DNA of 64,000 bases from Calothrix sp. NIES-3974. GTDB taxonomy: Bacteria; Cyanobacteriota; Cyanobacteriia; Cyanobacteriales; Nostocaceae. The notes beneath the pieces were generated by a model that worked only from the letters and a program-made list of their open reading frames with translations, searched no databases and was not told where the DNA came from. Shown here one piece after another: positions 48,611 through 63,806 of this stretch. Position numbers and translations under genes: made by a program. Position 1 is the first letter of the stretch; each line of letters begins with the position of its first letter. The stretch covers positions 5,580,001-5,644,000 of the forward strand of contig NZ_AP018254.1 of NCBI RefSeq assembly GCF_002368395.1. The letters are read 5' to 3'.

Positions 48611-51051
48611 GTTTCAATCCCTAATAGGGATTATTTAGTTTTGTAACGTTGTCAAATTTCCTGCTGTTCCTTACATCTCGTGTTTCAATCCCTAATAGGG
48701 ATTATTTAGTTTTGTAACCCCAATCTGGCGTATGCACAGGCGGTGGCAGACGTTTCAATCCCTAATAGGGATTATTTAGTTTTGTAACTGAAGCAAATGA
48801 TAGCAGATAGCTGAGGGAATATGAGCGTTTCAATCCCTAATAGGGATTATTTAGTTTTGTAACACACAGAGCATGGCAGGCTCTTGAAGGCGTGACTCGT
48901 TTCAATCCCTAATAGGGATTATTTAGTTTTGTAACGATGTGCTACATCTGTACGGCTTGCCGGATTCTGTTTCAATCCCTAATAGGGATTATTTAGTTTT
49001 GTAACATAGCGGTAGCATTTACATCTAGCAGTATCAGATCGTTTCAATTCAAATGAATTATCCTTATCAAACCAAGAGAAGGACAGGTAGCATTTACATC
49101 TAGCAGTATCAGATCGTTTCAATCCCTAATAGGGATTATTTAGTTTTGTAACCTGCAGCTAGCTGGTTTTCCTCTTCTGCAGCGTTCGTTTCAATCCCTA
49201 ATAGGGATTATTTAGTTTTGTAACGCAAGGCTTCCAGAGGTGTCCCGGTACGAAATCTACCGTGTTTCAATCCCTAATAGGGATTATTTAGTTTTGTAAC
49301 AGTGTCAATGGCTTTGGGTTCGGTGTGTACCTAACGTTTCAATCCCTAATAGGGATTATTTAGTTTTGTAACTAAGCTCCGCGCGATCAATATCCGCGCC
49401 AATCAGTAGGTGTTTCAATCCCTAATAGGGATTATTTAGTTTTGTAACCTTCTTGATTCCGCCAAAGCGTTTGGTGCGCTGTGGTTTCAATCCTTAATAG
49501 GGATTATTTAGTTTTGTAACAGCCGAGGACGATAACGGAGCCCCCTACATATCTGTTTCAATCCCTAATAGGGATTATTTAGTTTTGTAACCCAAAGCGC
49601 TAATATTTAGCATCATCTATGGTGCGTTTCAATCCCTAATAGGGATTATTTAGTTTTGTAACCCGTGTCTAGGGCTTGTCGCAGGGTATTGAAGTCGGTT
49701 TCAATCCCTAATAGGGATTATTTAGTTTTGTAACCTACCTTCTTAGTGATAGCAACCTATTCTCTGGTAGTTTCAATCCCTAATAGGGATTATTTAGTTT
49801 TGTAACGTGTGGTCGAGCTCATAGGCTTTGCCTACGTTGAATGCAGTTTCAATCCCTAATAGGGATTATTTAGTTTTGTAACGGTATACCTATGATCTTG
49901 AGTAGACTAAGGCATAGGTAGTTTCAATCCCTAATAGGGATTATTTAGTTTTGTAACGTAACAAAGGAGAAAAGAGATGGCAGACCTTATTTGGTTTCAA
50001 TCCCTAATAGGGATTATTTAGTTTTGTAACTATTTGTCACCTCTCTCACTAGTTACCCCTTAAGCTGTTTCAATCCCTAATAGGGATTATTTAGTTTTGT
50101 AACCTGCCATTGGCGGAAGGCACTCTGCTGCTGCTCATATGCTGTTTCAATCCCTAATAGGGATTATTTAGTTTTGTAACTCCTATTCCTTTCCGCGCAA
50201 TCCCACGCGCGGAAAGTTTCAATCCCTAATAGGGATTATTTAGTTTTGTAACAAGCATATCATAGATAAAGCCTTAGCTTAGACAATGTTTCAATCCCTA
50301 ATAGGGATTATTTAGTTTTGTAACACGACGACGACGACGATCTTTTCTGAAATCCCAGTTTCAATCCCTAATAGGGATTATTTAGTTTTGTAACTCATTA
50401 GTATCATAAGGGTGTGGGTGGTGAGGTGTTTCAATCCCTAATAGGGATTATTTAGTTTTGTAACGGATAGCTGCATCCTGGTTTCCAGGAACGGCGGCTA
50501 TAAGGTTTCAATCCCTAATAGGGATTATTTAGTTTTGTAACGAGGAGGTGTATTGGATGAGGGCAAAGCTAGAAAAGGTTTCAATCCCTAATAGGGATTA
50601 TTTAGTTTTGTAACGCGTTCAGAGCTGACACCTTTTGCTGGTGAAGCGTTTCAATCCCTAATAGGGATTATTTAGTTTTGTAACCTTGGGGGAGGGGGCA
50701 GCATAGGGAACCATAGACGTTTCAATCCCTAATAGGGATTATTTAGTTTTGTAACTAAGACTAGCTCTACTAGATGCGGACAAACTACAGGCGGTAAGTT
50801 TCAATCCCTAATAGGGATTATTTAGTTTTGTAACCAGGCAACTTCAGCCCATCGAAGCCGGCATCAGTGTTTCAATCCCTAATAGGGATTATTTAGTTTT
50901 GTAACGTACATGTTTGTCACGGATGATAGCATGATCCCGGAGGTTTCAATCCCTAATAGGGATTATTTAGTTTTGTAACAAGTCATCAGCTGCTCCTGGG
51001 TAGCGACATACTCGGTTTCAATCCCTAATAGGGATTATTTAGTTTTGTAAC
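48611..51051 (-). CRISPR. Type I-D CRISPR array, 33 repeats
   Basis: 33 full 37-bp repeats (starting GTTTCAATCCCTAATAGGGA and ending GTTTTGTAAC on the plus strand) plus a broken piece at 49041-49048. Spacers are 33-42 nt. The reverse strand ends each repeat in the ATTGAAAC handle typical of type I-D, so transcription is probably leftward from a leader at ~51052-51320 beside cas2. The repeat at 49484 has one C-to-T change. One interval is 110 nt instead of ~35 (49006-49115) because of an internal insertion (see findings). Confidence 0.98.
49006..49115. repeat. Anomalous array interval: 37-bp insert flanked by 38-bp direct duplication
   Basis: The spacer at 49006-49040 is followed by only GTTTCAAT (49041-49048), then 37 bp of unrelated sequence (49049-49085). 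Then comes an exact copy of the last 30 bp of the spacer plus GTTTCAAT (49086-49123), which continues into the next intact repeat. The 38-bp direct repeats are 49011-49048 and 49086-49123. Confidence 0.95.
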
Positions 51052-51323
51052 CGTTCATAGTCAGAACCCTTACCATATTTAGTTTTCAAGGTGCAAAGGT
51101 GCGAACCTCTTTTAAAATACTCTTTCAGCCACTGACTTGTCAAGGGGAAGGCGGAGAAAAAACGCTCAAAACCATTCATAGTAAGCTTTTCGAGAATGGT
51201 GCGAACCTCCTTTTGGTTCCCAAGCCGGGAAACCCTTATCCAGCAAGTATTTCCAGCGAAAAAAAGCCTCATCCTATTTTTACACCCCCTGGTTCGCACC
51301 CAAATCGACAAATAATTACGAAA
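51052..51323 (-). promoter_or_regulatory. CRISPR leader with GGTGCGAACC motifs
   Basis: An AT-rich leader between the newest repeat and cas2. GGTGCGAACC occurs at 51098-51107 and 51198-51207, exactly 100 bp apart, and inverted (GGTTCGCACC) at 51291-51300. Open frames here on both strands are accidental. The motifs could be integration-anchor or regulator sites. Confidence 0.65.
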
Positions 51324-51596
51324 TCAGACAAGGAATATAGAATTATCTCGTGGCATTTCACCGCCGATACGCTCTACTTTACCTTGGCAGCAGGCACAAA
51401 GGAAGTAAAAGCGCACACTATCTTCATCTGGTTTTATCAATTTGGAAAGCCGCGATCGCAATTTTGCGTACTGAGTGTCTGTTAAATCGCACTCAAATAC
51501 AGAATACTGCATCCACTGTCCGTAGGATTTGAGAATGCGATGAATTTTAGTACGACGCTTATCTTGAGGAATATCGTAGGAGACAACTACAAACAT
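51324..51596 (-). CDS. cas2: CRISPR-associated endonuclease Cas2
   Basis: A 90-aa ferredoxin-fold protein that dimerises and bridges two Cas1 dimers during spacer integration. It starts MFVVVSYDIPQDKRRTKIHR with the conserved acidic residue in the first strand, then YGQWMQYSVFECDLT and FYFLCACCQGKVERIG. The ATG at 51596 is preferred over a TTG four codons upstream. Separated from cas1 by a 78-bp tandem repeat tract rather than the usual short gap. Confidence 0.95.
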   Translation of the reverse strand: MFVVVSYDIPQDKRRTKIHRILKSYGQWMQYSVFECDLTDTQYAKLRSRLSKLIKPDEDSVRFYFLCACCQGKVERIGGEMPRDNSIFLV

Positions 51597-51628
51597 GACT
51601 TGACACAAAAAATAATCACTTTAAGAAC

Positions 51629-52018
51629 CAGTTACTTGATGACAAAGGAGAGATGGAATTAGCGATCGCTAGTCAGTTCAATCTCTGAAGGAGACAAAGA
51701 GAGATTCAGTTACTTGATGACAAAGGAAAAATGGAATTGGCGATCGCTAGTCAGTTCAATCTCTGAAGGAGACAAAGAGAGATTCAGTTACTTGATGACA
51801 AAGGAAAAATGGAATTGGCGATCGCTAGTCAGTTCAATCTCTGAAGGAGACAAAGAGAGATTCAGTTACTTGATGACAAAGGAGAGATGGAATTAGCGAT
51901 CGCTAGTCAGTTCAATCTCTGAAGGAGACAAAGAGAGATTCAGTTACTTGATGACAAAGGAGAGATGGAATTAGCGATCGCTAGTGACAGTGTGGATTTA
52001 TGGGATCACTTCAACAAA
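51629..52018. repeat. 78-bp tandem repeat between cas2 and cas1 (five units)
   Basis: Units begin CAGTTACTTGATGAC at 51629, 51707, 51785, 51863 and 51941. A sixth related start is at 52019, inside the cas1 3' end (CAGTTACTTCATGAC). Each unit has a HIP1 site (GCGATCGC). Units 1-4 are nearly identical; the last unit keeps the first 45 bp and then diverges. On the minus strand the boundary mimics the cas1 C-terminus: LSFVIK-stop versus PPLVMK-stop. Confidence 0.9.
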
Positions 52019-52021
52019 CAG

Positions 52022-53026
52022 TTACTTCATGACTAAGGGAGGATACTTGTCTATTTCCCCCATTAGGTACTTACCCAACAAACGAGCTTGAATTTCAAAG
52101 CTTTCCTGATAGGTTTTTTGAATTCCCAAAACAGGGTGTTTAAATTTTGTCAATTTTTTCTCCTGATATAAGCGCAAAAAGGTATGTAAAGCTTCCTTAG
52201 TCAGGGAAACCGCATTACTTACCGGTTCGGTGACAAAATCTGAAGGTTTGAAAATCTTTCGATTAATTGCTGAAATCACCACAGCATCGACAATCAAAGG
52301 TCGAAATTCTTCCATTAAATCTAGTGCTAAGGAGGGTCTACCATAACGTTCGACATGTAAGTATCCTAAATAGGGGTCAAACCCAACAATGTTTAAAGCT
52401 CCTTGTATGTCGTGTCGTAGCAATGAATATCCCAAACTTAACAGAGAGTTAACTGGGTCAACTGGTGGACGACGATTACGATTTGTAAAACAGAAGTTTT
52501 CATTCCGGAGTAATTGATTAAAGCAAGCAAAATAAGCTGCACTTCCTACACCTTCATAACCGCGAACAGAATCAATAGTCGCTGCTGTTTCTAGGGATGC
52601 GATCGCATTTCCCAAAGTGGTTAAATTTTCACAGAGATCAACATCACTGTAGCTGCGTTGAGTTTTTGCTAGAGCATAGCGATAATTCTTGAGTTTTCCT
52701 CTCACAAAACCCTTGACAACATGAAGAGCTTGGAATGACTCACCAGCAGCTTTCCACTGAGCATTTCGTAAATATACATTTTTACTCATTTCCGGTTCTA
52801 AACGAGCTATATATTTACCGTTTGCAGTTAAAAAAGTCAGTGGTATTTTATGATTAATTAATTCGGAAATCGCCATTGGGGAAATACTGACTCTTCCCAT
52901 GACTACTAAACCATCTATTTTAATCAAAGGAACGTCTAAAATCGTCTTTTTATCATATTTGACATTTAATCTTTCATCAACTTTGGCGATAAAAGCATCT
53001 TCCTGTGTTACGTATAATGTTCCCAT
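52022..53026 (-). CDS. cas1: CRISPR-associated endonuclease Cas1 (type I-D)
   Basis: A 334-aa metal-dependent integrase. The N-terminal beta-domain begins MGTLYVTQEDAFIAKVDERL. Catalytic Glu is in RGYEGVGSAAYF, His in YLGYLHVERYGRPSLALDL, and acidic residues are in DLMEEFRPLIVD. Full length for the subtype. With Cas2 it inserts prespacers at the leader-proximal repeat and duplicates the 37-bp repeat. The downstream region toward cas2 carries tandem copies of its 3' end. Confidence 0.96.
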   Translation of the reverse strand: MGTLYVTQEDAFIAKVDERLNVKYDKKTILDVPLIKIDGLVVMGRVSISPMAISELINHKIPLTFLTANGKYIARLEPEMSKNVYLRNAQWKAAGESFQALHVVKGFVRGKLKNYRYALAKTQRSYSDVDLCENLTTLGNAIASLETAATIDSVRGYEGVGSAAYFACFNQLLRNENFCFTNRNRRPPVDPVNSLLSLGYSLLRHDIQGALNIVGFDPYLGYLHVERYGRPSLALDLMEEFRPLIVDAVVISAINRKIFKPSDFVTEPVSNAVSLTKEALHTFLRLYQEKKLTKFKHPVLGIQKTYQESFEIQARLLGKYLMGEIDKYPPLVMK

Positions 53027-53220: not shown

Positions 53221-53862
53221 TCAATCAGTTTCACAATACTTCCTGATTTTCTCTCCAACCTTGGGTAAACATTGCGGTTCCAAACTGCAACCTTTACAGC
53301 GCTGACTATACACAGCCCGTGGCATCATTCCAGTTTTCAATAATTTTGTAACCTCTGCGATCGCGGTAATAGTTTGCTGACGTAATTCCTGATTAATTTC
53401 TATCAACTGTCGCTGGTGAGTTTGCGCATAATAAACATACCCAACTCCAATACTTTTTCCCGTCATTTCCTCCAAACACAAAGCTTGAGCGCACACCTGT
53501 AATTCATCATTATCCCACTCCCCCTTTCTTCCCCGTTTATATTCCACCGGATACCATTCCCCATTTTCCAACTCAATTAAATCCGATTTACCAATTAATT
53601 TATACTTATCTGACTTCAACCAAATTGCACGCACTTGCCAAACTTCCTCACGATTACTATCCCCGATAGTATGCACCCGCTCATGTAAACTTGTCCCTTC
53701 AATCGTGTATTGATTATCCATAAAATCACCCAAACAATGCATTCTCCAACAACGATGGGGACAATAGGAATATTGATTTAAGGCAGCAATAGAAATATAA
53801 TCATCCGTGCTAACAGCAGAATTACAGATGACAGAAGATAGAGTCTCTTTTTGATTATTCAT
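53221..53862 (-). CDS. cas4: CRISPR-associated exonuclease Cas4
   Basis: A 213-aa RecB-like nuclease with a 4Fe-4S cluster. The N-terminal Cys is in YSYCPHRCW and the C-terminal cluster is CKGCSLEPQC. Nuclease motifs are GKSDLIE, VEYKRGRKG and CAQALCLEE (QAxxL). It selects and trims prespacers next to the PAM. The start at 53862 is preferred over a TTG/ATG 15 codons upstream because the intervening residues are not Cas4-like. Confidence 0.94.
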   Translation of the reverse strand: MNNQKETLSSVICNSAVSTDDYISIAALNQYSYCPHRCWRMHCLGDFMDNQYTIEGTSLHERVHTIGDSNREEVWQVRAIWLKSDKYKLIGKSDLIELENGEWYPVEYKRGRKGEWDNDELQVCAQALCLEEMTGKSIGVGYVYYAQTHQRQLIEINQELRQQTITAIAEVTKLLKTGMMPRAVYSQRCKGCSLEPQCLPKVGEKIRKYCETD

Positions 53863-53960
53863 GATTACTTCACTTTCTACATATCCAGATAAATTATTAA
53901 TCAGCAATAACCTACGAAATAAACTTACAAATTAAGTAGCTTCCTCCCCAAATAGCAGGC

Positions 53961-54034: not shown

Positions 54035-54883
54035 TTACGAATTATTATTCACTCTCCTCACCATTCCCATCCCCATTGTCGTCTTCCTCCCCACTCCAGC
54101 GAAAATAGCAAAATCAGCTAAAGCATTTATCCTCTTAATTTCCATTGCTTCAATATCCCCCATAATCCGATAGCTAACTTCCCCAACAATCCCAATAAAT
54201 TTGCTGCGAGAATCAGCAACTATTTCCGTATGAATATTTATAAAACTGGGAAAAACACTCTCCAAATTCACCTTTGTAAACTCAATTCCACTATATTTAT
54301 TCCACCGAGATAGTAAAGAATTAAAAACAGATTCCCTTGTCGGTAAGGTCGTATCATACTTACCCTGACGAAAAGCCGTAGGAGTTGCAAAACTTAACGA
54401 AATCACCCGTTCAGAATCGCTCGCTTGCTGATATAATTGCCCATAACTGCAAGAGTTTGCCCAGGGCTGGGTAGATTGGGGTGTAGCCAAAATACTGGTA
54501 ATAAATAAATCCGCACTACCCAAACGCCAAGGTTGCTCTGGATTAATATTTAACCACAGGGGTGTTAACTTACCAAACAACGTATCATCGAGTAGGGATA
54601 TCCTCCACCAACAAGGAGTACCAGGAGGAATCGGTTGCGGTTGCTCAACTTGTAGTAGCTTACTGTATTGGGAATTTTTGTGTTGATACCTATGATTTGT
54701 TTGAACTTGCAGAGGTGAAAGGGTAAAAGCTTTATCTGCGGTAGAGTCGTGAAGTTTGTCACCGAGATTGCGATCCACCGAACTAATCAGATTCAAAAAT
54801 AAAGCGTGGTAGTGTCTCCCGGTGAGGTAGTTAGGGTAGATGGGGGATTTGGGGATGAGGTTGAGAATTAGGCTATGAGGCAT
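54035..54883 (-). CDS. cas6: CRISPR RNA endoribonuclease Cas6
   Basis: A 282-aa protein that cleaves the pre-crRNA in the repeat to leave the ATTGAAAC 5' handle. C-terminal glycine-rich loop GVGRKTTMGMGMVRR is diagnostic; IMGDIEAMEIKRINALADFAIF precedes it. The N-terminal part is HALFLNLISSVDRNLGDKLHD. A His near the N-terminus (GRHYHALFL) may be catalytic. Length normal. Start codon ATG. The C-terminal residues run into a family E repeat. Confidence 0.92.
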   Translation of the reverse strand: MPHSLILNLIPKSPIYPNYLTGRHYHALFLNLISSVDRNLGDKLHDSTADKAFTLSPLQVQTNHRYQHKNSQYSKLLQVEQPQPIPPGTPCWWRISLLDDTLFGKLTPLWLNINPEQPWRLGSADLFITSILATPQSTQPWANSCSYGQLYQQASDSERVISLSFATPTAFRQGKYDTTLPTRESVFNSLLSRWNKYSGIEFTKVNLESVFPSFINIHTEIVADSRSKFIGIVGEVSYRIMGDIEAMEIKRINALADFAIFAGVGRKTTMGMGMVRRVNNNS

Positions 54884-54939: not shown

Positions 54940-55553
54940 CTAATGTGGGATCTTCTCTTGTTCTCCATCGGTCAAATTATACTGCTCGCAAACCAAACTC
55001 AATCGATATCCGGGAGTTTTCACCGGGTTAACAGCATGGGTTAAGTCACCTTGAAAGTGCAGCAAAGTGTTGATCTGGGGTTGAGTTTGTCCCAAATGAC
55101 GTTTATTTGCTTTGAGAACCAGTTCTCCCCCTTCCATATTCAGAGGTAGACGGACACAGAGAACACTCACAACCAAAGGTGGTTCAACGGTCTTGCAATA
55201 GCTGTGTTTCCCTCAAGAAGGGCTTTCAATTCGCCTCACAAAGGTGGTTCAACGGTCTTGCAATAGGAACGTAAAGAACGATCAACATGGGGATCAACAC
55301 GGGAACCTTCCTGAAGTAACAACGGATTCAGGTAGAAAACATTACAATTTGGTTGGAGAGCTAAATCCAAGTAAGACTGAAAATAGAAGAACTTTTGTTC
55401 TACTAAAGAGATATGCGATCACGCAAACACGACAGAAAAACCTTTATTCCCGACAAAATCACGATTCAGGTTGTTGACGCTAAGGTAGGGACAAGCATGA
55501 ATTTCCCCCAGAGGTGATTGAGGTATAGCTTTTCCCAAGCAACTGAGGTACAT
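54940..55553 (-). pseudogene. 2OG-Fe(II) oxygenase, disrupted by a 37-bp insertion and a stop
   Basis: Reading leftward from ATG at 55553: SPLGEIHACPYLSVNNLNRD, FVGNKGFSVVFA, TGA (55419-55421), then SHISLVEQKF, LLLQEGSRVDPHVDRSLRSY and CKTVEPPL. It is then interrupted, and resumes VVSVLCVRLPLNMEGGELVL...LLHFQGDLTHAVNPVKTPGY...SLVCEQYNLTDGE. HVD and the later His give the iron triad. Removing 65 bp (37-bp insert plus one 28-bp direct repeat) restores the frame to ~182 codons. It lies between csc1 and cas6 in the cas operon. Confidence 0.8.
55174..55266. repeat. 37-bp insert flanked by 28-bp direct duplication
   Basis: Perfect 28-bp direct repeats at 55174-55201 and 55239-55266 (CAAAGGTGGTTCAACGG...CAATAG) enclose 37 bp (55202-55238) that contain CCCTCAAGAAGGG and are foreign to the oxygenase reading frame. 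Confidence 0.95.
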
Positions 55554-55730
55554 CTAAAATTCTCTAGCTTTGATCAAAATACAAGCAGAATTAAAATCGT
55601 ACCTCACCAGACCGGGAACCGCTATAATCAAAGGGGAAAGCATTAAGTTTTTGTTGATAGTATTTCACAGAATTCAAAGTTTGCTGATGGTTCACCACTG
55701 GTTGGTCGGTAAACCATCCGATAGTAATGA

Positions 55731-56453
55731 TTAACTACGAAAATAATAAGCCATTCGAGCCGGAATTTTCATCTCTTTCATCTCTTTGATTTGGTAATAT
55801 TGTCCTCGCATTTGCACATTTTGAATTAAACTAACAGGAGGCATATTCACCACATCGTAACTAAATACTTGATTTGTAAACATCACATCCAAAGGGTTTA
55901 AAGGGTGTTTACAAGTGAATAAACCTTCAGTTACTGGAGCTTCAGCTAATTTATTAACCATTACCTCCGCTTTACTCATCCATTTTCCCAAACGAATCCA
56001 TTTTGGTAACAAGTCTTTGATGTCTTTTTGGGAAATGATAAAAAACTCAAATTGACTTTCCGGTGCAATTTCTTTTGCTCTACCAAAACTAGGAATGTTT
56101 TTTTGGGTTTTCTCCATTTCCACATGGTAATTATTATTGGCATACTTCCATGTATTGAGAACAGAGGTATGGTGAATAGAAGCAGCAGGGGTGACATAAA
56201 TACCCTGTTGATTGAGAGGGGTTAAATGTTGTTCGTATTTTGGTACTTGTTCTGGACAAAAATAGCGATAGGAATCTTCCTCTGGGACATTAGTTGCATA
56301 TTTGTCACTGTCAATTAACCCCAGTGCATAGCAAAGTGCATAATTGTGAATTATTGGCTCTGTTTCGTAGAGTCTACCGATTTCGCGAGTAGCATGATAC
56401 ATACTATCATGCAATTCGATTTGACAATGGTAGATAAAACTCATAATTCTCAC
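55731..56453 (-). CDS. csc1: Type I-D Cascade subunit Csc1 (Cas5d-type)
   Basis: A 240-aa RAMP-fold Cas5 protein of the I-D effector that caps the crRNA 5' handle. It starts MRIMSFIYHCQIELHDSMYHATREIGRLYETEPIIHNYALCYALGL; the C-terminal part has NPLDVMFTNQV, VNMPPVSLIQNVQMRGQYYQI and ends PARMAYYFR, matching Csc1. Overlaps the csc2 stop by 4 bp (ATGA), so translation is coupled. The start could be Met1 or Met4. Confidence 0.92.
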   Translation of the reverse strand: MRIMSFIYHCQIELHDSMYHATREIGRLYETEPIIHNYALCYALGLIDSDKYATNVPEEDSYRYFCPEQVPKYEQHLTPLNQQGIYVTPAASIHHTSVLNTWKYANNNYHVEMEKTQKNIPSFGRAKEIAPESQFEFFIISQKDIKDLLPKWIRLGKWMSKAEVMVNKLAEAPVTEGLFTCKHPLNPLDVMFTNQVFSYDVVNMPPVSLIQNVQMRGQYYQIKEMKEMKIPARMAYYFRS

Positions 56454-57475
56454 TCCATTGCAGCAGCTTTTTTACCTTTTTTTCCTTTCTCGGAATTCTT
56501 CGCTTCCGAATTCTTGGAAATATATTTCTGTGCATAAGCAGAAGATTCAAGATTTGCTTGCGTCAGCAATTCTTGAAGTTTTGCTTCATTGCTAGTAATT
56601 AACTTAACTTCATCTAGTAAGGGAGTGAAATTTTCTCCGATATAATCAGTATGGGTGACATATTCTTGAGTCATTAATTCATTAATTGCTTTAATTGCTG
56701 CTTTGCGAACATCATCTTCATTTAATGGATCGGGTGGATTAATTTTGCCATCGAAACTTAATAAATCATATATTTTCTGTGTCCAACGTAGGTTACTAAC
56801 AATTTCTCCGTCAGCAAAAATTACTCCCATTAACTCATTTCTTACTCGTCCAGTTCGGGTTGTTTGCGCTCCATAGTGACGGGTTCTCAGAATATTATTG
56901 AATATATACAAAAATCCCGCTTCTGTGGGGTCTTTGAGGGTGACAATACTAGGGAAGAAAACTTGAGGTAGAATGTGGTCTTGACTGTTAATTCTGCTTG
57001 TAACTTCCCCATTGCGACTCATAGTCCCATTTTCATAGGGAGCATTCAGGGTAAAGTTCAGGTGAGAGTCATCAAAGGGTGTAATGGAAAAAGCTGTGTC
57101 TACGACAACTTTAGATTTTTCCGAACCAGCATCACCAATGGCAAAACCATAGAGAATACAATCGGGAGTAGTTTTACTAAAATCGACGTTATAGTCGCAT
57201 TTTTCCCAGTCACCAATTTTGTAATTCCTGAGTAATTCTCTCCCAGTTAAACGTTCGGGTGTGGATTGTTTGCGTTTAAACATTGCCAAACGACTAATTG
57301 CTTCTGCATGTTGAATACCAGCACGCACTTTGACTTTATTTAATTCTCCGTCTGTTTGGAATAATGGGTAAGATTCAGTGATACGAATTGTCACAAAATG
57401 AGCATATTTACCCATTGGTTTTGCTGGGATTTCGTTGTGGAAGAATTTAGCGTCAACGGTTTTCAGAAAGTTCAT
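56450..57475 (-). CDS. csc2: Type I-D Cascade backbone subunit Csc2 (Cas7d)
   Basis: A 341-aa Cas7-type RAMP that polymerises along the crRNA spacer. Typical segments are PMGKYAHFVTIRITESYPLF, AISRLAMFKRKQSTPERLTG, ITPFDDSHLNFTLNAPYENG and TRHYGAQTTRTGRVRNELMGVIF. C-terminal tail is Lys-rich (EKGKKGKKAAA). The start is ATG at 57475 with GGAG upstream; the longer TTG-initiated form is rejected. Overlaps csc1 by 4 bp. Confidence 0.94.
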   Translation of the reverse strand: MNFLKTVDAKFFHNEIPAKPMGKYAHFVTIRITESYPLFQTDGELNKVKVRAGIQHAEAISRLAMFKRKQSTPERLTGRELLRNYKIGDWEKCDYNVDFSKTTPDCILYGFAIGDAGSEKSKVVVDTAFSITPFDDSHLNFTLNAPYENGTMSRNGEVTSRINSQDHILPQVFFPSIVTLKDPTEAGFLYIFNNILRTRHYGAQTTRTGRVRNELMGVIFADGEIVSNLRWTQKIYDLLSFDGKINPPDPLNEDDVRKAAIKAINELMTQEYVTHTDYIGENFTPLLDEVKLITSNEAKLQELLTQANLESSAYAQKYISKNSEAKNSEKGKKGKKAAAME

Positions 57476-57521
57476 ATGTTTCTCCAAGGGTTAAGGTTAA
57501 ACAAAAATACGAAATCTATTG

Positions 57522-57552: not shown

Positions 57553-60500
57553 TTAGGCTGCATCATCAACACCCAAATCAGGAATATCTTCAGGTTCTGT
57601 TTGGGGAAGGTTTTTACGTTCTTCATCGTCTGTAAGACGATAGAGATATTCGCAGGTATCGCGGATGAGGTTGAGTTGTGTACCTGCTAAACGCGCGCGA
57701 TCGCTTTTAAAACTCTCTTTAAATATTTCTTCAACAAAATACTGAGCAAAGTCATATACTGCTTGACGTTCTTGTTCGGAAGTAAGTGCAGGTTTCCACT
57801 TTCCATCCACAAAAGTAAGGGTCGGTTTCCCCTCCGCAGTTCTCCTCCTAACATTATTCATTAATTTTGCTAAACGCGCTGCTACTACGTCTGTTAATGA
57901 TTCGGTGTCTGGTACAACAGCTTTGTCAATTTTCAAAATCACATCCGCAGCTTCATCAATGGGTTTGAGGATTGCGTTTGCTTTCGCATAAGAACTTTTT
58001 GCACGATAAAAACGGCGATAGAGTTCTGTTAATTTCCGCAATTTATTCACAGTTTCTTCTCCTGGTTCAAAGTACTTATACAAATCCATATAAAGACGAA
58101 TCTTAGCGATTGGGACAGAATCCATTGTCTTCTGTTGATTGTCTTTATCTTTTTTGGGTTTACGTAACCATTTAGTGAGATAATGAAAAACATACAAGGG
58201 ACTTGTTTCCAAATCTCTTGCTAAATCTGATAATTTACCCCAATCTGGATCACCATCCTTTTTCCGATTTACTTCTAGGTGAATACAATAAGCAGCAGTG
58301 AGTGCATTCAAAGGTGAAAATTCCCGTTTTTCTGAATTCCTAGGAAGAATACTATCTAAACGATAGATATCTTTTTTCACTAGAGAACGAATTGCTTGAT
58401 GTTCTCCATCTAATAACACAGTTTCGGCAAAATCAGCACCACTAATAAAAGGAGGAACAGGGGATTCAGAAGCGACAACTTTTACATCCATTACCAGTGG
58501 TAATGTCAATGCTAACCAAGCTGGTGTCACCCAAGATTCCGTATCTGTCGCATCTCTTCCGGGAGGTAATCCCAAGAAGAAAAATGTCAAAGTTTCCTGT
58601 TCAGGAAAGCTTATTTTAAAGGTTTTATCATCCTCTGGTTTCAGACTTTCCTTGATAAGTAAGGTATCAACTTGCTGATAATTGGTAATGTCAAACTTCG
58701 CAATTTGTTTCTCAGTAATAAAATGCTTGCGTAACTCTGCATCAAACCTAGTTCTGGCAAATTGATTGTAGGCTAATTGTAAAAATTTATTTGTCTCCGG
58801 TGTAAAAAAATAAGTTGGATAAAGATAGAGATAGCGATATTTACGACCTTCAAAATCCGCACCTACCGCATTAGTTTGATTCATTAAAATCTGTCTCAAC
58901 ATGATTTCAATCGACCAAATTGAGCAGATTTGTCGTTTTGCAGCTTGAGCATTAAATAAAATTTGTCGGTTGCTGTAAACTTGCGGTGCAAATAAAGTTG
59001 CTGACTCCATCTGTTCAGTGACAGTGTAAGCAGAACTCGACATTGCACAGACATTTTCCCTACCTCTTCCCGTTACTTTTGCTGCTTGATAACGTCGTAA
59101 TTCCTCCAGGAAGGGGTCAATTTCTGGTGTGACTACTGCTTGTGTCGGTAAGAATATAACTCGTTGCACATAGATTTTTAAATCCTTCCAACCATCAGGA
59201 ATATCTTGAAATTCTTGAAGAATTGGCTGAATTATACCTTCTGCATAACTTACCATTCCTCGCATAACTTCCAAGATTTGAGCAAAATCCTTACCCGGAT
59301 GCTTGCGGAAATACTGCGCTGCAAGATAGTACCAATCTAAAGGAACACCACCTGTTTTTTTCAGGGATTGAATTTGTTTAATAGCTGGTATTTCATCGGA
59401 TAATCCTAAATATTCCGCCAACTTTTGAGTTAAATCCAGTTCTGGTGGTATTTTTCTTTTGGCTTTAGGTATATCTTTTTGTGCTTGTTTTACCCTTTCA
59501 CACCAACTACCCCAAATTCCTCGACACAAAATATCACCAAATTCCGCTAATCTATCAATCCGAATTTCACTGGGAAATTGCAAGTTGAGATTTGTTGATA
59601 ACTCACCCTGGGTTTGATAGCTTTGTAAACTTTCACCCCTTTTCCCACTGGAAGCTGTTTTACCATCAGGAAGTAATCGACAAGCTGCATCGATACTGAC
59701 TTTCATTAATCCGATGACATCAAAGAATAACCAATAGTAATCTGCGAATTTAAATCCCTTCCCATCCCGATTAAATCCGGTTTGTCTTTCTCTGAGTTTT
59801 TCACCACACAGGTATTTCACCTTATTAACTACTCTTTCAGGTATGTCATCGGTATTAATTTCCGTTGCATCTTGACTAGCTAGGTAAACAACACCATCAG
59901 GTAAGTAGAGTAGTGGGGTATAAAATTCTTCGGGGTGCGCTTCAATGATGGCATTATTGAGGATATTCGTGAGAACACCACGATTTTCGCAAAGGGAATG
60001 GTATGTGAGTTTTAATTGATGGTTACTGAGTCTGCTAATGAGATTCGGTAAGCGACCAGTTTCTACATCTCTAGGATGTTTGACGACAGAAGCAAACAAA
60101 TCAGATAGGGAAACTAGGTCAATTAAATCCTGTCGAATGCGACTATCTAATCTGTCATCATCTAGGGTTTTTAAACCACGGGTAGCAAGACCTAAATCTG
60201 AGTCGTGTTTCACACCAGAATTACTGCTAATTTCAATAATATCGTCAATAAAATCTCGCCAATTCTCACCTAGTAAATGATGCAAACCAAAATCTTGGAT
60301 TTTTTTGGCAATGTAATCCCTTCCTAAATTGGGTGCATCTGCTTTCTGAGGAGGTTCTAATTCCCAATCTCTGTCAGCTACATTATTCTCTATCAACCAT
60401 GCTATGTAATCAGGAAATTTTTCATAATCATGCAGTAGGTAAGCAACGATAAAAATACAAACTTGTAACTCACCTAAGTTACGTTTAACTGGATTAGTTA

Positions 60501-60918
60501 CACTGGATTTTTGCAATTCCTTGATAATTCGATAGGTGGGAAATAATCCATTCAGTAAATGTGCAATTATCGATTGATCACCTGCATTTCTGGTGCTATC
60601 AACAGGTGGCTTACCTTCAGAAGCACGTTTAGCGTTGATTTTGGGAATAGTGACATCAAAAAACTTCCCACCTTTTGCAGTTGCACCTGCTAATTGTAAA
60701 ATTATATGTGGTAAAACATATTTCGCAAACTTTTCTAAAGTCGCATCATCCTGATTCCCTTTTGATTTTTTTACTGCTTCTATGAACAAGCGTATTGTGA
60801 GCAGTTCCTTTTTTAGAAGGAATTCATCATCATCTTCTTCTTTTGTAAAATCATAATCTGGTACTTCCTCCGGTAACTCATCATCCAAATTCTCCAAATT
60901 ATCTTCTAAGTTATTCAT
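57553..60918 (-). CDS. cas10d: Type I-D large subunit Cas10d (Csc3)
   Basis: A 1121-aa large subunit of the I-D effector and the nuclease partner of Cas3d. An N-terminal HD-type region includes QSIIAHLLNG and YLLHDYEKFPDYIAW (~130-180). In I-D, the HD nuclease is carried here instead of on Cas3. A cysteine pattern near the middle and a Palm-like central domain are present. The C-terminus is helical (AQYFVEEIFKESFKSDRARLAG). The N-terminus is very acidic. ATG start; ends 77 bp before csc2 with a hairpin between. The toxin gene upstream is only 5 bp away. Confidence 0.94.
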   Translation of the reverse strand: MNNLEDNLENLDDELPEEVPDYDFTKEEDDDEFLLKKELLTIRLFIEAVKKSKGNQDDATLEKFAKYVLPHIILQLAGATAKGGKFFDVTIPKINAKRASEGKPPVDSTRNAGDQSIIAHLLNGLFPTYRIIKELQKSSVTNPVKRNLGELQVCIFIVAYLLHDYEKFPDYIAWLIENNVADRDWELEPPQKADAPNLGRDYIAKKIQDFGLHHLLGENWRDFIDDIIEISSNSGVKHDSDLGLATRGLKTLDDDRLDSRIRQDLIDLVSLSDLFASVVKHPRDVETGRLPNLISRLSNHQLKLTYHSLCENRGVLTNILNNAIIEAHPEEFYTPLLYLPDGVVYLASQDATEINTDDIPERVVNKVKYLCGEKLRERQTGFNRDGKGFKFADYYWLFFDVIGLMKVSIDAACRLLPDGKTASSGKRGESLQSYQTQGELSTNLNLQFPSEIRIDRLAEFGDILCRGIWGSWCERVKQAQKDIPKAKRKIPPELDLTQKLAEYLGLSDEIPAIKQIQSLKKTGGVPLDWYYLAAQYFRKHPGKDFAQILEVMRGMVSYAEGIIQPILQEFQDIPDGWKDLKIYVQRVIFLPTQAVVTPEIDPFLEELRRYQAAKVTGRGRENVCAMSSSAYTVTEQMESATLFAPQVYSNRQILFNAQAAKRQICSIWSIEIMLRQILMNQTNAVGADFEGRKYRYLYLYPTYFFTPETNKFLQLAYNQFARTRFDAELRKHFITEKQIAKFDITNYQQVDTLLIKESLKPEDDKTFKISFPEQETLTFFFLGLPPGRDATDTESWVTPAWLALTLPLVMDVKVVASESPVPPFISGADFAETVLLDGEHQAIRSLVKKDIYRLDSILPRNSEKREFSPLNALTAAYCIHLEVNRKKDGDPDWGKLSDLARDLETSPLYVFHYLTKWLRKPKKDKDNQQKTMDSVPIAKIRLYMDLYKYFEPGEETVNKLRKLTELYRRFYRAKSSYAKANAILKPIDEAADVILKIDKAVVPDTESLTDVVAARLAKLMNNVRRRTAEGKPTLTFVDGKWKPALTSEQERQAVYDFAQYFVEEIFKESFKSDRARLAGTQLNLIRDTCEYLYRLTDDEERKNLPQTEPEDIPDLGVDDAA

Positions 60919-61554: not shown

Positions 61555-61717
61555 TGGTGTTTCTCCAAATTTGTCGTAATTCTTCTAAACGAATCCATTG
61601 GTCGTTTTTCTTTACTTCGATGTATTCCCACCCATTAGCTGCACCACCGTTAACCTTTGCTGCTAGGGGACTTGGTTTATCAAATTCTTCAATCTTTCTA
61701 ACATATCCATCCTTCAT
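61547..61717 (-). CDS. Unknown small protein (56 aa) coupled to cas3
   Basis: Starts MKDGYVRKIEEFDKPSPLAA, ends WIRLEELRQIWRNTND; the middle KVNGGAANGWEYIEVKKNDQ is compact and conserved-looking. No family recognised. The ATG lies inside the cas3 3' end (20-bp overlap), and the stop overlaps the DUF433 start by 8 bp. A longer frame from 61774 is rejected because it reads antisense-like cas3 sequence. It may be a third module component. Confidence 0.6.
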   Translation of the reverse strand: MKDGYVRKIEEFDKPSPLAAKVNGGAANGWEYIEVKKNDQWIRLEELRQIWRNTND

Positions 61718-63806
61718 CCTCCTTTGGTTTCCAATACCATGTAAGGGTTTCCAGTAACAACGCATCCTGTCCAAAAGCGATGGAATACCAGGAACCCCGA
61801 TTTTCTGGTTGGTTGGTCAACGGGTAAATTTGAAAGTGCATGGGTAATCGCAGGACAGCGCGTAAATAATTGCGATCGCGATCCGAAATAAAGCACACTA
61901 ATTTACGCCGACTGACTGCATCACTTATTTGTTGGATACCGTAACCGTGGGGTTGGCAAATCTCTAAGTTTTTTAAAAGCTGTACCTTACTTGTCTGAGC
62001 AAATTCGCGGATATTGCCTGGGTAGTAAAAATACCAATCCTCCCGGACATCGCGAAAGTCTTTTAGTTTCAGATAGCATAAGGCTTTTTCAAATCGCTTG
62101 GTAGAAACTCCTGCTGTTTTTGCTTTCTCCATGAAGCTATTTTTATCCCAAATTTCAAAAATAAAGTTACTGAGAATACCGGGAAGATGATAGGTTTTAA
62201 ATCGATCTGTTTCCGGTTCATCGGGGTTAGTTAAATCATAAATGGCACAATCTAATTGACTACTACCACGAAAACTTCGAGCTTCATCTATAATTTTATT
62301 TTTACCCTCATTTTGACAGCGATAAAACTGGGCATTGATTTGTTTGATACTAATTCCTAATGCTTTTTGAATATGGGTACCAAACTTTTTCGCCACATCG
62401 GGATATTTTTCTTTCATGCGACATAGTTTTGAGTAAATGTCAGCTGATTGCATACCACCCCATCGCTGGGGATACCGTTCAAATTCATTTCGATTAATCC
62501 ATACACTACGAATTGCGTCTGTAAAATTTATGCGGTCATAGGTTTGATTTTCTTCCAAGGGATGGGATTCTTCTACAAACAACCTGGCAACTAAAAAATT
62601 GGGAATTAAAGCATAGGCTTGATAGATAGAAAAACCTGGATGTCTTCCTAATCTGCCAAAACGCTGAATAAAATTGCCTGCATCTGCTGCTTCAAAAATT
62701 AAAAAATTAATCCGAAAATCTACACCGACATCAATTGTAGAAGTTCCTATCAATAAATCTGCTTCAGCGATGGAATCTCTTTTTTCTGTTTCCCCCGTTA
62801 ATCCGGTATTTTCTCTAACTTGCCAGCGCGGTTCAAATACTGCCTTAAATTTTGGTAATAACTTCTTCACCGCAGCAATGGAATTCAGGATAATTGCCCC
62901 TTTACTATTGGGATTATCTTGGAAAAATTTGAGGATTACTGTTTCTAGATTCTCTTCTATCCATTCCCGACTAGAACGTAAATTAGGTTCTAAGCCAGAG
63001 GGGAAATTTAAGGTGATCGGTTGACTAATTTGTCTCCATTCCTGTTGATAGCTATCGACAGTAAACTGATAAGCTCCGGCATCTATGGGATTAATAATTT
63101 TTACTTTTATTCCCGCCTTCTCGAAATATCCTTGTAATAACTCGCTGGGAGTGGCGGAGAGAAAGAGGAACTTTTTGGGATGATTGGCTGTGTTCCGAAT
63201 TAAGAATATCGTATTAATTACACTAGCAATTTGGGGTGAGGAGAAAATATGAAATTCATCATAAATAAATAGTTTATACCTCTCATCAATGCGACGAAAT
63301 AATCTATCTGGATTGTCTATTTTTCCCCGTAAATAGTAAAAATTATGAATGTAATGAAACAAATCTGGATTGGTCAGCAGTATTTCATGATTACTGGAAA
63401 TATCCTCTAATCCTTCCAACTTAGCAGGTAGTTTTACCCCATCCACATAATTCTCCAAAATAGCTGCTGTTAACCGATATATCTGCGGATCATAATGGGG
63501 TTGAAACTGTGCTTTGTAAGCTTGTACCTGCTTTTCCTGGTCTCTCACCAACTCATTGGTGGGATACATCCCTAAAGTATACATACGCTGATTCATAGAC
63601 GGGAGAAAAGCTGCTAAACTCTTCCCATCTCCCGTCATAGCAGTGTTAAATATTACTTCTACCTGTGGGTCTTGCAACGCTTTATAAGTCTCCCCTTGAT
63701 GCCAAGATAGTGACCAGCCGTTAGGTATTTTCACCCCGTTAGGTGTGGGGATGGTCTGGGAAAAAACTGGTTGTAGATAAATACGATAGCTAGACAGGTT
63801 GGACAT
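61698..63806 (-). CDS. cas3: Type I-D helicase Cas3d (Cas3', no HD domain)
   Basis: A 702-aa superfamily 2 helicase that unwinds target DNA for the Cas10d HD nuclease. Walker A is TAMTGDGKSLAAFLP, Walker B/DExH is FIYDEFHIFSS, motif III is FLFLSATPSE, motif V is GTSTIDVGVDF and motif VI is QRFGRLGRHPGF. No HD domain, as expected for I-D. The first gene of the minus-strand cas operon, divergent from the regulator at 63899. Confidence 0.94.
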   Translation of the reverse strand: MSNLSSYRIYLQPVFSQTIPTPNGVKIPNGWSLSWHQGETYKALQDPQVEVIFNTAMTGDGKSLAAFLPSMNQRMYTLGMYPTNELVRDQEKQVQAYKAQFQPHYDPQIYRLTAAILENYVDGVKLPAKLEGLEDISSNHEILLTNPDLFHYIHNFYYLRGKIDNPDRLFRRIDERYKLFIYDEFHIFSSPQIASVINTIFLIRNTANHPKKFLFLSATPSELLQGYFEKAGIKVKIINPIDAGAYQFTVDSYQQEWRQISQPITLNFPSGLEPNLRSSREWIEENLETVILKFFQDNPNSKGAIILNSIAAVKKLLPKFKAVFEPRWQVRENTGLTGETEKRDSIAEADLLIGTSTIDVGVDFRINFLIFEAADAGNFIQRFGRLGRHPGFSIYQAYALIPNFLVARLFVEESHPLEENQTYDRINFTDAIRSVWINRNEFERYPQRWGGMQSADIYSKLCRMKEKYPDVAKKFGTHIQKALGISIKQINAQFYRCQNEGKNKIIDEARSFRGSSQLDCAIYDLTNPDEPETDRFKTYHLPGILSNFIFEIWDKNSFMEKAKTAGVSTKRFEKALCYLKLKDFRDVREDWYFYYPGNIREFAQTSKVQLLKNLEICQPHGYGIQQISDAVSRRKLVCFISDRDRNYLRAVLRLPMHFQIYPLTNQPENRGSWYSIAFGQDALLLETLTWYWKPKEDEGWIC

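What the first reader, a model, noticed from the sequence alone, without database searches (positions are those of the whole stretch)
55174..55266. Second 37-bp insertion with target duplication, in a gene of the cas operon
The 2OG-Fe(II) oxygenase gene between csc1 and cas6 is interrupted by exactly 37 bp flanked by a perfect 28-bp direct repeat. Excising one repeat plus the insert restores the reading frame (…TVEPPL|VVSVL…). The insert length equals that of the array insertion. On the minus strand the duplicated target starts CTATTGCAAG, similar to ATTGAAAC at the start of the other target. Two such scars in one I-D locus suggest recurrent off-target integration, possibly creating a neo-CRISPR seed.
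Basis: partly seen in the sequence, partly recalled or inferred. Interest (0 to 1): 0.85.

Follow-up and report, generated by a model that had tools for sequence, protein, structure and literature searches.

The report
Misplaced CRISPR spacer scar in pseudogene
A 37-base piece of unknown DNA was inserted into a decaying gene inside a cyanobacterium's CRISPR operon, duplicating 28 bases of the target; at least six other places in the same genome carry inserts of the same size with 36-39-base target duplications, the lengths of the organism's own CRISPR spacers and repeats, so its spacer-inserting enzyme has probably hit its own chromosome repeatedly.

Summary
A perfect 28-bp direct repeat flanks 37 unique bp in a 2OG-Fe(II) oxygenase gene between csc1 and cas6 of a complete type I-D operon. 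Eleven relatives have the empty site, so this is an insertion with target-site duplication (TSD), not a 65-bp tandem duplication. The gene also carries a premature stop and a ~103-bp dispersed repeat: it is a pseudogene.

In 2.86 Mb of this genome (48%), eight unique, clean-ended two-copy repeat-insert-repeat structures lie outside the window. Six have repeats of 36-39 bp and inserts of 33-38 bp; the I-D array has 37-bp repeats and 33-42-bp spacers (mean 35.8). Four of these six have an empty site elsewhere (xisH, two intergenic sites, one copy of a dispersed repeat). The likeliest cause is off-target Cas1-Cas2 integration.

Not supported: ATTGNAA as a general target rule, any protospacer source, and reuse as neo-CRISPR arrays. 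The finding is the outlier of the set: its TSD is 28 bp, about one helical turn short, so its membership is probable, not proven. Off-target integration is known in principle; the natural set of scars is the interesting part.

The parts
55174..55201 (-). target-site duplication, copy 1 (28 bp; reads CTATTGCAAGACCGTTGAACCACCTTTG on the coding, minus, strand)
   Evidence: single copy in relatives
55202..55238 (.). 37-bp insert, unique in the genome, absent from relatives; spacer-length
   Evidence: I-D array spacers 33-42, mean 35.8
55239..55266 (-). target-site duplication, copy 2 (28/28 identical)
54940..55690 (-). 2OG-Fe(II) oxygenase pseudogene between csc1 and cas6 (approximate limits); carries the insertion, a TGA at 55419-55421 and a ~103-bp dispersed repeat at ~55524-55626
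   Evidence: PF13640 on the 3' part at E 1.3e-5, just under the curated cut-off; intact homologues in the same place in relatives
49011..49123 (.). second structure in the CRISPR array: 38-bp duplication (49011-49048, 49086-49123; last 8 nt of a repeat plus 30 nt of the adjoining spacer) around a 37-bp insert (49049-49085)
48611..51055 (-). I-D CRISPR array, 33 repeats of 37 nt found at up to 2 mismatches, spacers 33-42 nt; transcribed strand inferred from repeat ending GGGATTGAAAC
51324..51608 (-). cas2 (best model Cas2d)
52022..53026 (-). cas1, intact
53221..53907 (-). cas4 (Cas4d)
54035..54883 (-). cas6 (Cas6d)
55731..56453 (-). csc1 / cas5d
56450..57487 (-). csc2 / cas7d
57553..60918 (-). 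cas10d (csc3)
61698..63806 (-). cas3d helicase

Best explanation
The structure is a scar of off-target spacer integration by the I-D adaptation complex (Cas1-Cas2-Cas4) into a non-CRISPR site. The integrase joined the two 3' ends of a ~37-bp prespacer to opposite strands of the oxygenase gene at points 28 bp apart; gap filling then duplicated those 28 bp. Shown: an insertion happened, with TSD; the genome carries a class of such insertions with repeat-length TSDs and spacer-length inserts; an intact cas1-cas2-cas4 set is present. Inferred: that Cas1-Cas2 did it, that the I-D rather than the second cas1 system did it, and that this site with its 28-bp TSD belongs to the class. A one-helical-turn shorter spacing between the two attack points is the suggested reason for 28 instead of ~37-38. 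The scar appears inert: the host gene is a pseudogene and no second spacer was added.
For: Empty site in 11 relatives. Of 8 independent structures outside the window, 6 have inserts within the array's spacer range 33-42 and all 6 have repeats of 36-39: P = 4.5e-7 if insert lengths were uniform over 5-200 bp, 0.001 even if a fifth of them fell there by nature. The I-D array has repeat 37 and spacers of mean 35.8, sd 2.4. Empty sites elsewhere: L138 in xisH (G013), L072 and L082 (same-genus genome G001), L053 (paralogous copy of a dispersed repeat). The inserts are unrelated to each other and to their flanks, as spacers would be and a transposon family would not. TSD edges read GT, like both ends of the I-D repeat (GTTAC.../GTTTC...), in 4 of 12 independent ends, p 0.003 uncorrected. 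Complete cas1, cas2, cas4. Similar structures in other species' I-D loci: L172 39/36 at the cas4 3' end, L222 38/35. In vitro Cas1-Cas2 integrates outside arrays (PMC10011333, PMC6895254), and second-site choice depends on a ruler element in the repeat (PMC6895254), which a foreign target lacks.
Against: The finding's TSD is 28 bp, while all other sites have 36-39 despite also lacking a CRISPR repeat. No protospacer source was found for any insert searched, so foreign origin is not shown. No clear shared target motif. No experiment. Sequence of 52% of the genome was not scanned.
Confidence: 0.72

Rival explanations
1. Repair of a staggered break (28-nt overhangs filled in) with 37 bp of captured filler DNA, or a templated insertion during replication; nothing to do with CRISPR. 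The finding would then be one of the few background structures, and only the 36-39 class would be Cas1-Cas2.
For: TSD of 28 lies outside the 36-39 cluster; two structures of other lengths exist in the same sample (L143 35/7, L097 31/143), so a background exists.
Against: Background is thin: two in 2.86 Mb spread over all gap lengths, so one landing in the spacer-length range by chance is expected about 0.1 times. The insert has no local or genomic template.
Confidence: 0.2
2. 65-bp tandem duplication of native sequence that later lost the end of its second unit.
For: Repeat-insert-repeat can arise this way in principle; the genome has many tandem arrays, and three of my first candidates were exactly this (L043, L082:3163, L032:12500).
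Against: Relatives have neither the 37 bp nor a second copy; the insert does not resemble its flanks.
Confidence: 0.02
3. Integration by the second adaptation system of the genome (cas1 and cas2 at L017 12060-13333, array with ~36-nt repeats and spacers 35-50).
For: A second intact cas1-cas2 pair exists; its repeat length of ~36 also fits most TSDs.
Against: Its spacers run longer (35-50) than the inserts (33-38).
Confidence: 0.1
4. Assembly artefact.
For: Only one assembly of this genome was available.
Against: Single closed contig; the structures are short enough for any read; eight independent sites with matching lengths.
Confidence: 0.02

Closest known systems
Off-target (non-canonical) spacer integration by Cas1-Cas2 in E. 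coli, with putative natural cases in Yersinia pestis and Sulfolobus islandicus (Nivala, Shipman and Church 2018, doi 10.1038/s41564-017-0097-z; paper not held here, contents from memory and from citing papers PMC11788318, PMC9456107)
   Same: spacer-length insert flanked by a repeat-length duplication of chromosomal sequence outside any array
   Different: type I-D cyanobacterium at native expression; several scars in one natural genome with empty sites; one lies in the cas operon; this one has a TSD clearly shorter than the repeat
Canonical I-D spacer acquisition (Cas4-Cas1-Cas2; review PMC10212523)
   Same: insert length matches array spacers; other scars have the repeat length as TSD
   Different: target is not the leader-repeat junction; no leader, no CRISPR repeat
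In vitro off-target integration by type II-A Cas1-Cas2 (PMC6895254)
   Same: non-CRISPR targets are used; target edges tend to resemble a leader-repeat junction
   Different: here the resemblance is limited to a weak GT preference and TGAAAC at two of six independent sites
Casposon or transposon insertion with TSD
   Same: short insert, target duplicated
   Different: TSDs are far too long for most transposons, inserts share no ends and carry no element

Membership tests
Off-target Cas1-Cas2 spacer integration | insertion relative to an empty site, with direct duplication of target | tested here: met
   (11 relatives)
Off-target Cas1-Cas2 spacer integration | insert of spacer length for the resident system | tested here: met
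   37 bp against array range 33-42, mean 35.8
Off-target Cas1-Cas2 spacer integration | TSD about the length of the resident repeat (37) | tested here: not met
   28 bp for the finding; met (36-39) by the array structure and the six independent sites. The finding is therefore described as working like this class, with membership probable only
Off-target Cas1-Cas2 spacer integration | intact cas1 and cas2 in the genome | tested here: met
Off-target Cas1-Cas2 spacer integration | target edges resemble leader-repeat or repeat edges | tested here: inconclusive
   templates and ATTGNAA not above random in six independent sites; GT at edge p 0.003 and TGAAAC near edge, both uncorrected and partly post hoc
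Off-target Cas1-Cas2 spacer integration | insert derived from a protospacer | tested here: inconclusive
   no match for any insert searched
neo-CRISPR array | three or more units, or repeated acquisition at the new site | tested here: not met
tandem duplication | insert is native flanking sequence | tested here: not met

The most novel reading that the evidence does not exclude
A natural I-D integrase has scarred its own chromosome at roughly two visible sites per megabase, breaking genes (xisH, probably a DUF2459 gene, the oxygenase in its own operon), and can join the two ends one helical turn closer together than the repeat length, giving 28-bp instead of ~37-bp duplications. Spacer acquisition would then be a general, readable mutational process in such genomes.
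Probability: 0.5. Interest if true: 0.78.

Novelty: new member of a known kind. Interest (0 to 1): 0.62.

Why it matters
Off-target integration has been seen mainly in vitro and with overexpressed Cas1-Cas2. A natural genome with several datable scars and known empty sites shows that the process happens at native levels, gives a cost of adaptive immunity that can be counted, and offers a way to read integrase geometry (TSD length against local repeat length) from genome sequence alone across thousands of genomes. It also bears on how new CRISPR arrays could begin, although no scar here has grown into one.

Tried and rejected
Protospacer source: blastn of the insert and of seven others against phages and plasmids, exact 20-24-mers in IMG/VR, and own genome at up to 3 mismatches for three inserts; nothing convincing. 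The short BLAST matches of inserts within the genome (12-19 nt) are chance-level. ATTGNAA and repeat-edge templates: no better than random. First scan overstated the class: L043:9115, L082:3163 and L032:12500 are degenerate tandem duplications and were removed by comparing insert with flanks. In other species, L206:8115 and L157:7984 look like fragments of hairpin dispersed repeats and L169:14857 is a coding repeat; not counted. A 28-nt-repeat CRISPR system that would explain the 28-bp TSD was looked for only through cas1: there are two cas1 genes, with 37- and ~36-nt repeats. A control scan of a genome without cas1 was not made. One oxygenase literature search failed on syntax.

Full report
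What is there. The stated coordinates are exact: a perfect 28-bp repeat at 55174-55201 and 55239-55266 with 37 bp between. The gene is the 3' half of a 2OG-Fe(II) oxygenase (PF13640, E 1.3e-5, slightly under the curated cut-off), on the minus strand between csc1 and cas6 of a complete I-D operon. Removing one repeat and the insert restores the frame at this point, and relatives L003-L013 have the unduplicated sequence there, e.g. CTACTGCAAAACCGTTGAACCACCTG once, with a 65-bp gap against the window. This settles the direction: insertion with target duplication. It does not stand alone: the same gene has a TGA at 55419-55421 and a ~103-bp dispersed repeat at about 55524-55626, so it was, or became, a pseudogene and a neutral target.

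Is it part of a class? I fetched 2.86 Mb of the 5.99-Mb genome (plus the window) and listed all direct repeats of at least 25 bp with at most one mismatch, unique in the sample, only two copies nearby, sharp ends, 5-200 bp apart, with an insert that does not resemble the flanks (degenerate tandem arrays removed) and excluding known CRISPR repeats. Ten structures remain. Two are the window's own (38/37 in the array, 28/37 the finding; repeat/insert). Of the eight others, six are 39/33 (L082), 38/34 (L053), 37/35 (L032), 39/35 with one mismatch (L078), 36/36 (L072) and 38/38 (L138); the other two are 35/7 and 31/143. The six fall in the length range of the I-D array, whose repeat is 37 and whose spacers are 33-42, mean 35.8, sd 2.4. 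With insert lengths uniform over 5-200 the chance of six of eight in 33-42 is 4.5e-7; with a generous 20% it is 0.001. Because an exact repeat is lengthened by chance matches at its ends, 36-39 is what a true TSD near 37 should look like (inference).

Are the others insertions too? L138: 38 + 38 bp in a xisH gene (PF08814, E 2.9e-48 after excision); genome G013 has the single-copy site. L072 and L082: the same-genus genome G001 has single-copy sites aligning straight across at 93% and 89%. L053: it lies in a dispersed repeat, another copy of which has one copy of the target. L032: the 35-bp insert is absent from G001 and excision opens a 217-aa DUF2459-like frame, but G001 differs locally so the exact edges are not proven. 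L078: unresolved. The inserts are unrelated to one another, so they are not copies of a small transposon.

Mechanism. Short unrelated inserts of spacer length with duplications of repeat length are what two-ended integration of a prespacer by Cas1-Cas2 followed by gap filling leaves behind. Cas1, Cas2 and Cas4 are intact in the operon. A second cas1-cas2 pair exists (L017 12060-13333) with ~36-nt repeats and longer spacers (35-50) and cannot be excluded as the source. In vitro, Cas1-Cas2 uses sites outside arrays (PMC10011333), and off-target sites of a type II-A complex resemble the leader-repeat junction (PMC6895254). Here the target preference is weak: the ATTGNAA idea fails in the six independent sites; GT at the TSD edge is seen in 4 of 12 ends (p 0.003), and TGAAAC sits one to three bases inside the edge in L072, L032 and the array site, the top hexamer of 4096 but not significant after correction. 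I treat this as a lead.

Where the finding stands within the class. Its insert length fits, its TSD does not: 28 against 36-39. Other sites lacking any CRISPR repeat still gave 36-39, so absence of a ruler element alone does not explain 28. The difference of about 10 bp is one turn of DNA, which would keep both attack points on the same face; this is a suggestion, not a result. The background of structures with unrelated lengths is about two in 2.86 Mb over all lengths, so a chance background event with a spacer-length insert is expected about 0.1 times. Hence about 0.7 for off-target integration and 0.2 for filler capture in break repair.

What it does. Nothing visible. No site outside the CRISPR arrays has three or more such units, so none has been reused as an array. 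No source was found for the inserts.

Elsewhere. Among 80 I-D-type cas1 loci from other genomes (1.28 Mb), comparable structures occur at L172:9809 (39/36, duplicating the 3' end of cas4 with its stop codon), L178:9809 (36/40) and L222:11546 (38/35). Their empty sites were not checked.

Novelty. Off-target spacer integration is a known kind (Nivala et al. 2018, doi 10.1038/s41564-017-0097-z; not held, known from memory and from citing papers PMC9456107 and PMC11788318). I found no paper describing it for cyanobacteria or type I-D, within a library that lacks most subscription journals.

Noticed in passing
window 54940-55690; loci L003-L008, L159-L178, L188, L209, L217, L221: A 2OG-Fe(II) oxygenase gene sits between csc1 and cas6 in 25 of the I-D loci examined (57 loci had both csc1 and cas6), intact in other Nostocales: a candidate accessory gene of I-D systems, lost in L157 and decayed here.
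   Followed up: partly
window 55524-55626: ~103-bp dispersed repeat inside the oxygenase pseudogene, with about 8 further copies in the genome and others in relatives.
   Followed up: no
window 51629-51985: 78-bp tandem repeat, 4.6 copies at 97%, between cas2 and cas1.
   Followed up: no
L138:13694-13807: xisH gene broken by a 38-bp insert with a 38-bp duplication; empty in G013 (L240).
   Followed up: yes
L054:8655, L039:37, L146:15809: Two-repeat CRISPR units away from the main arrays; two with a third repeat type (GTTTCAATCCCTAATAGGGATTAATTTGAATTGCAAT), one with the repeat of the second system.
   Followed up: no
L017 12060-15507: Second cas1-cas2 pair with a 27-repeat array; no effector genes seen among the ORFs of the 20-kb stretch by eye.
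   Followed up: partly
L172:9809-9922: Nostoc sp. CHAB 5844: 39-bp duplication of the cas4 3' end around a 36-bp insert, just before cas1.
   Followed up: partly
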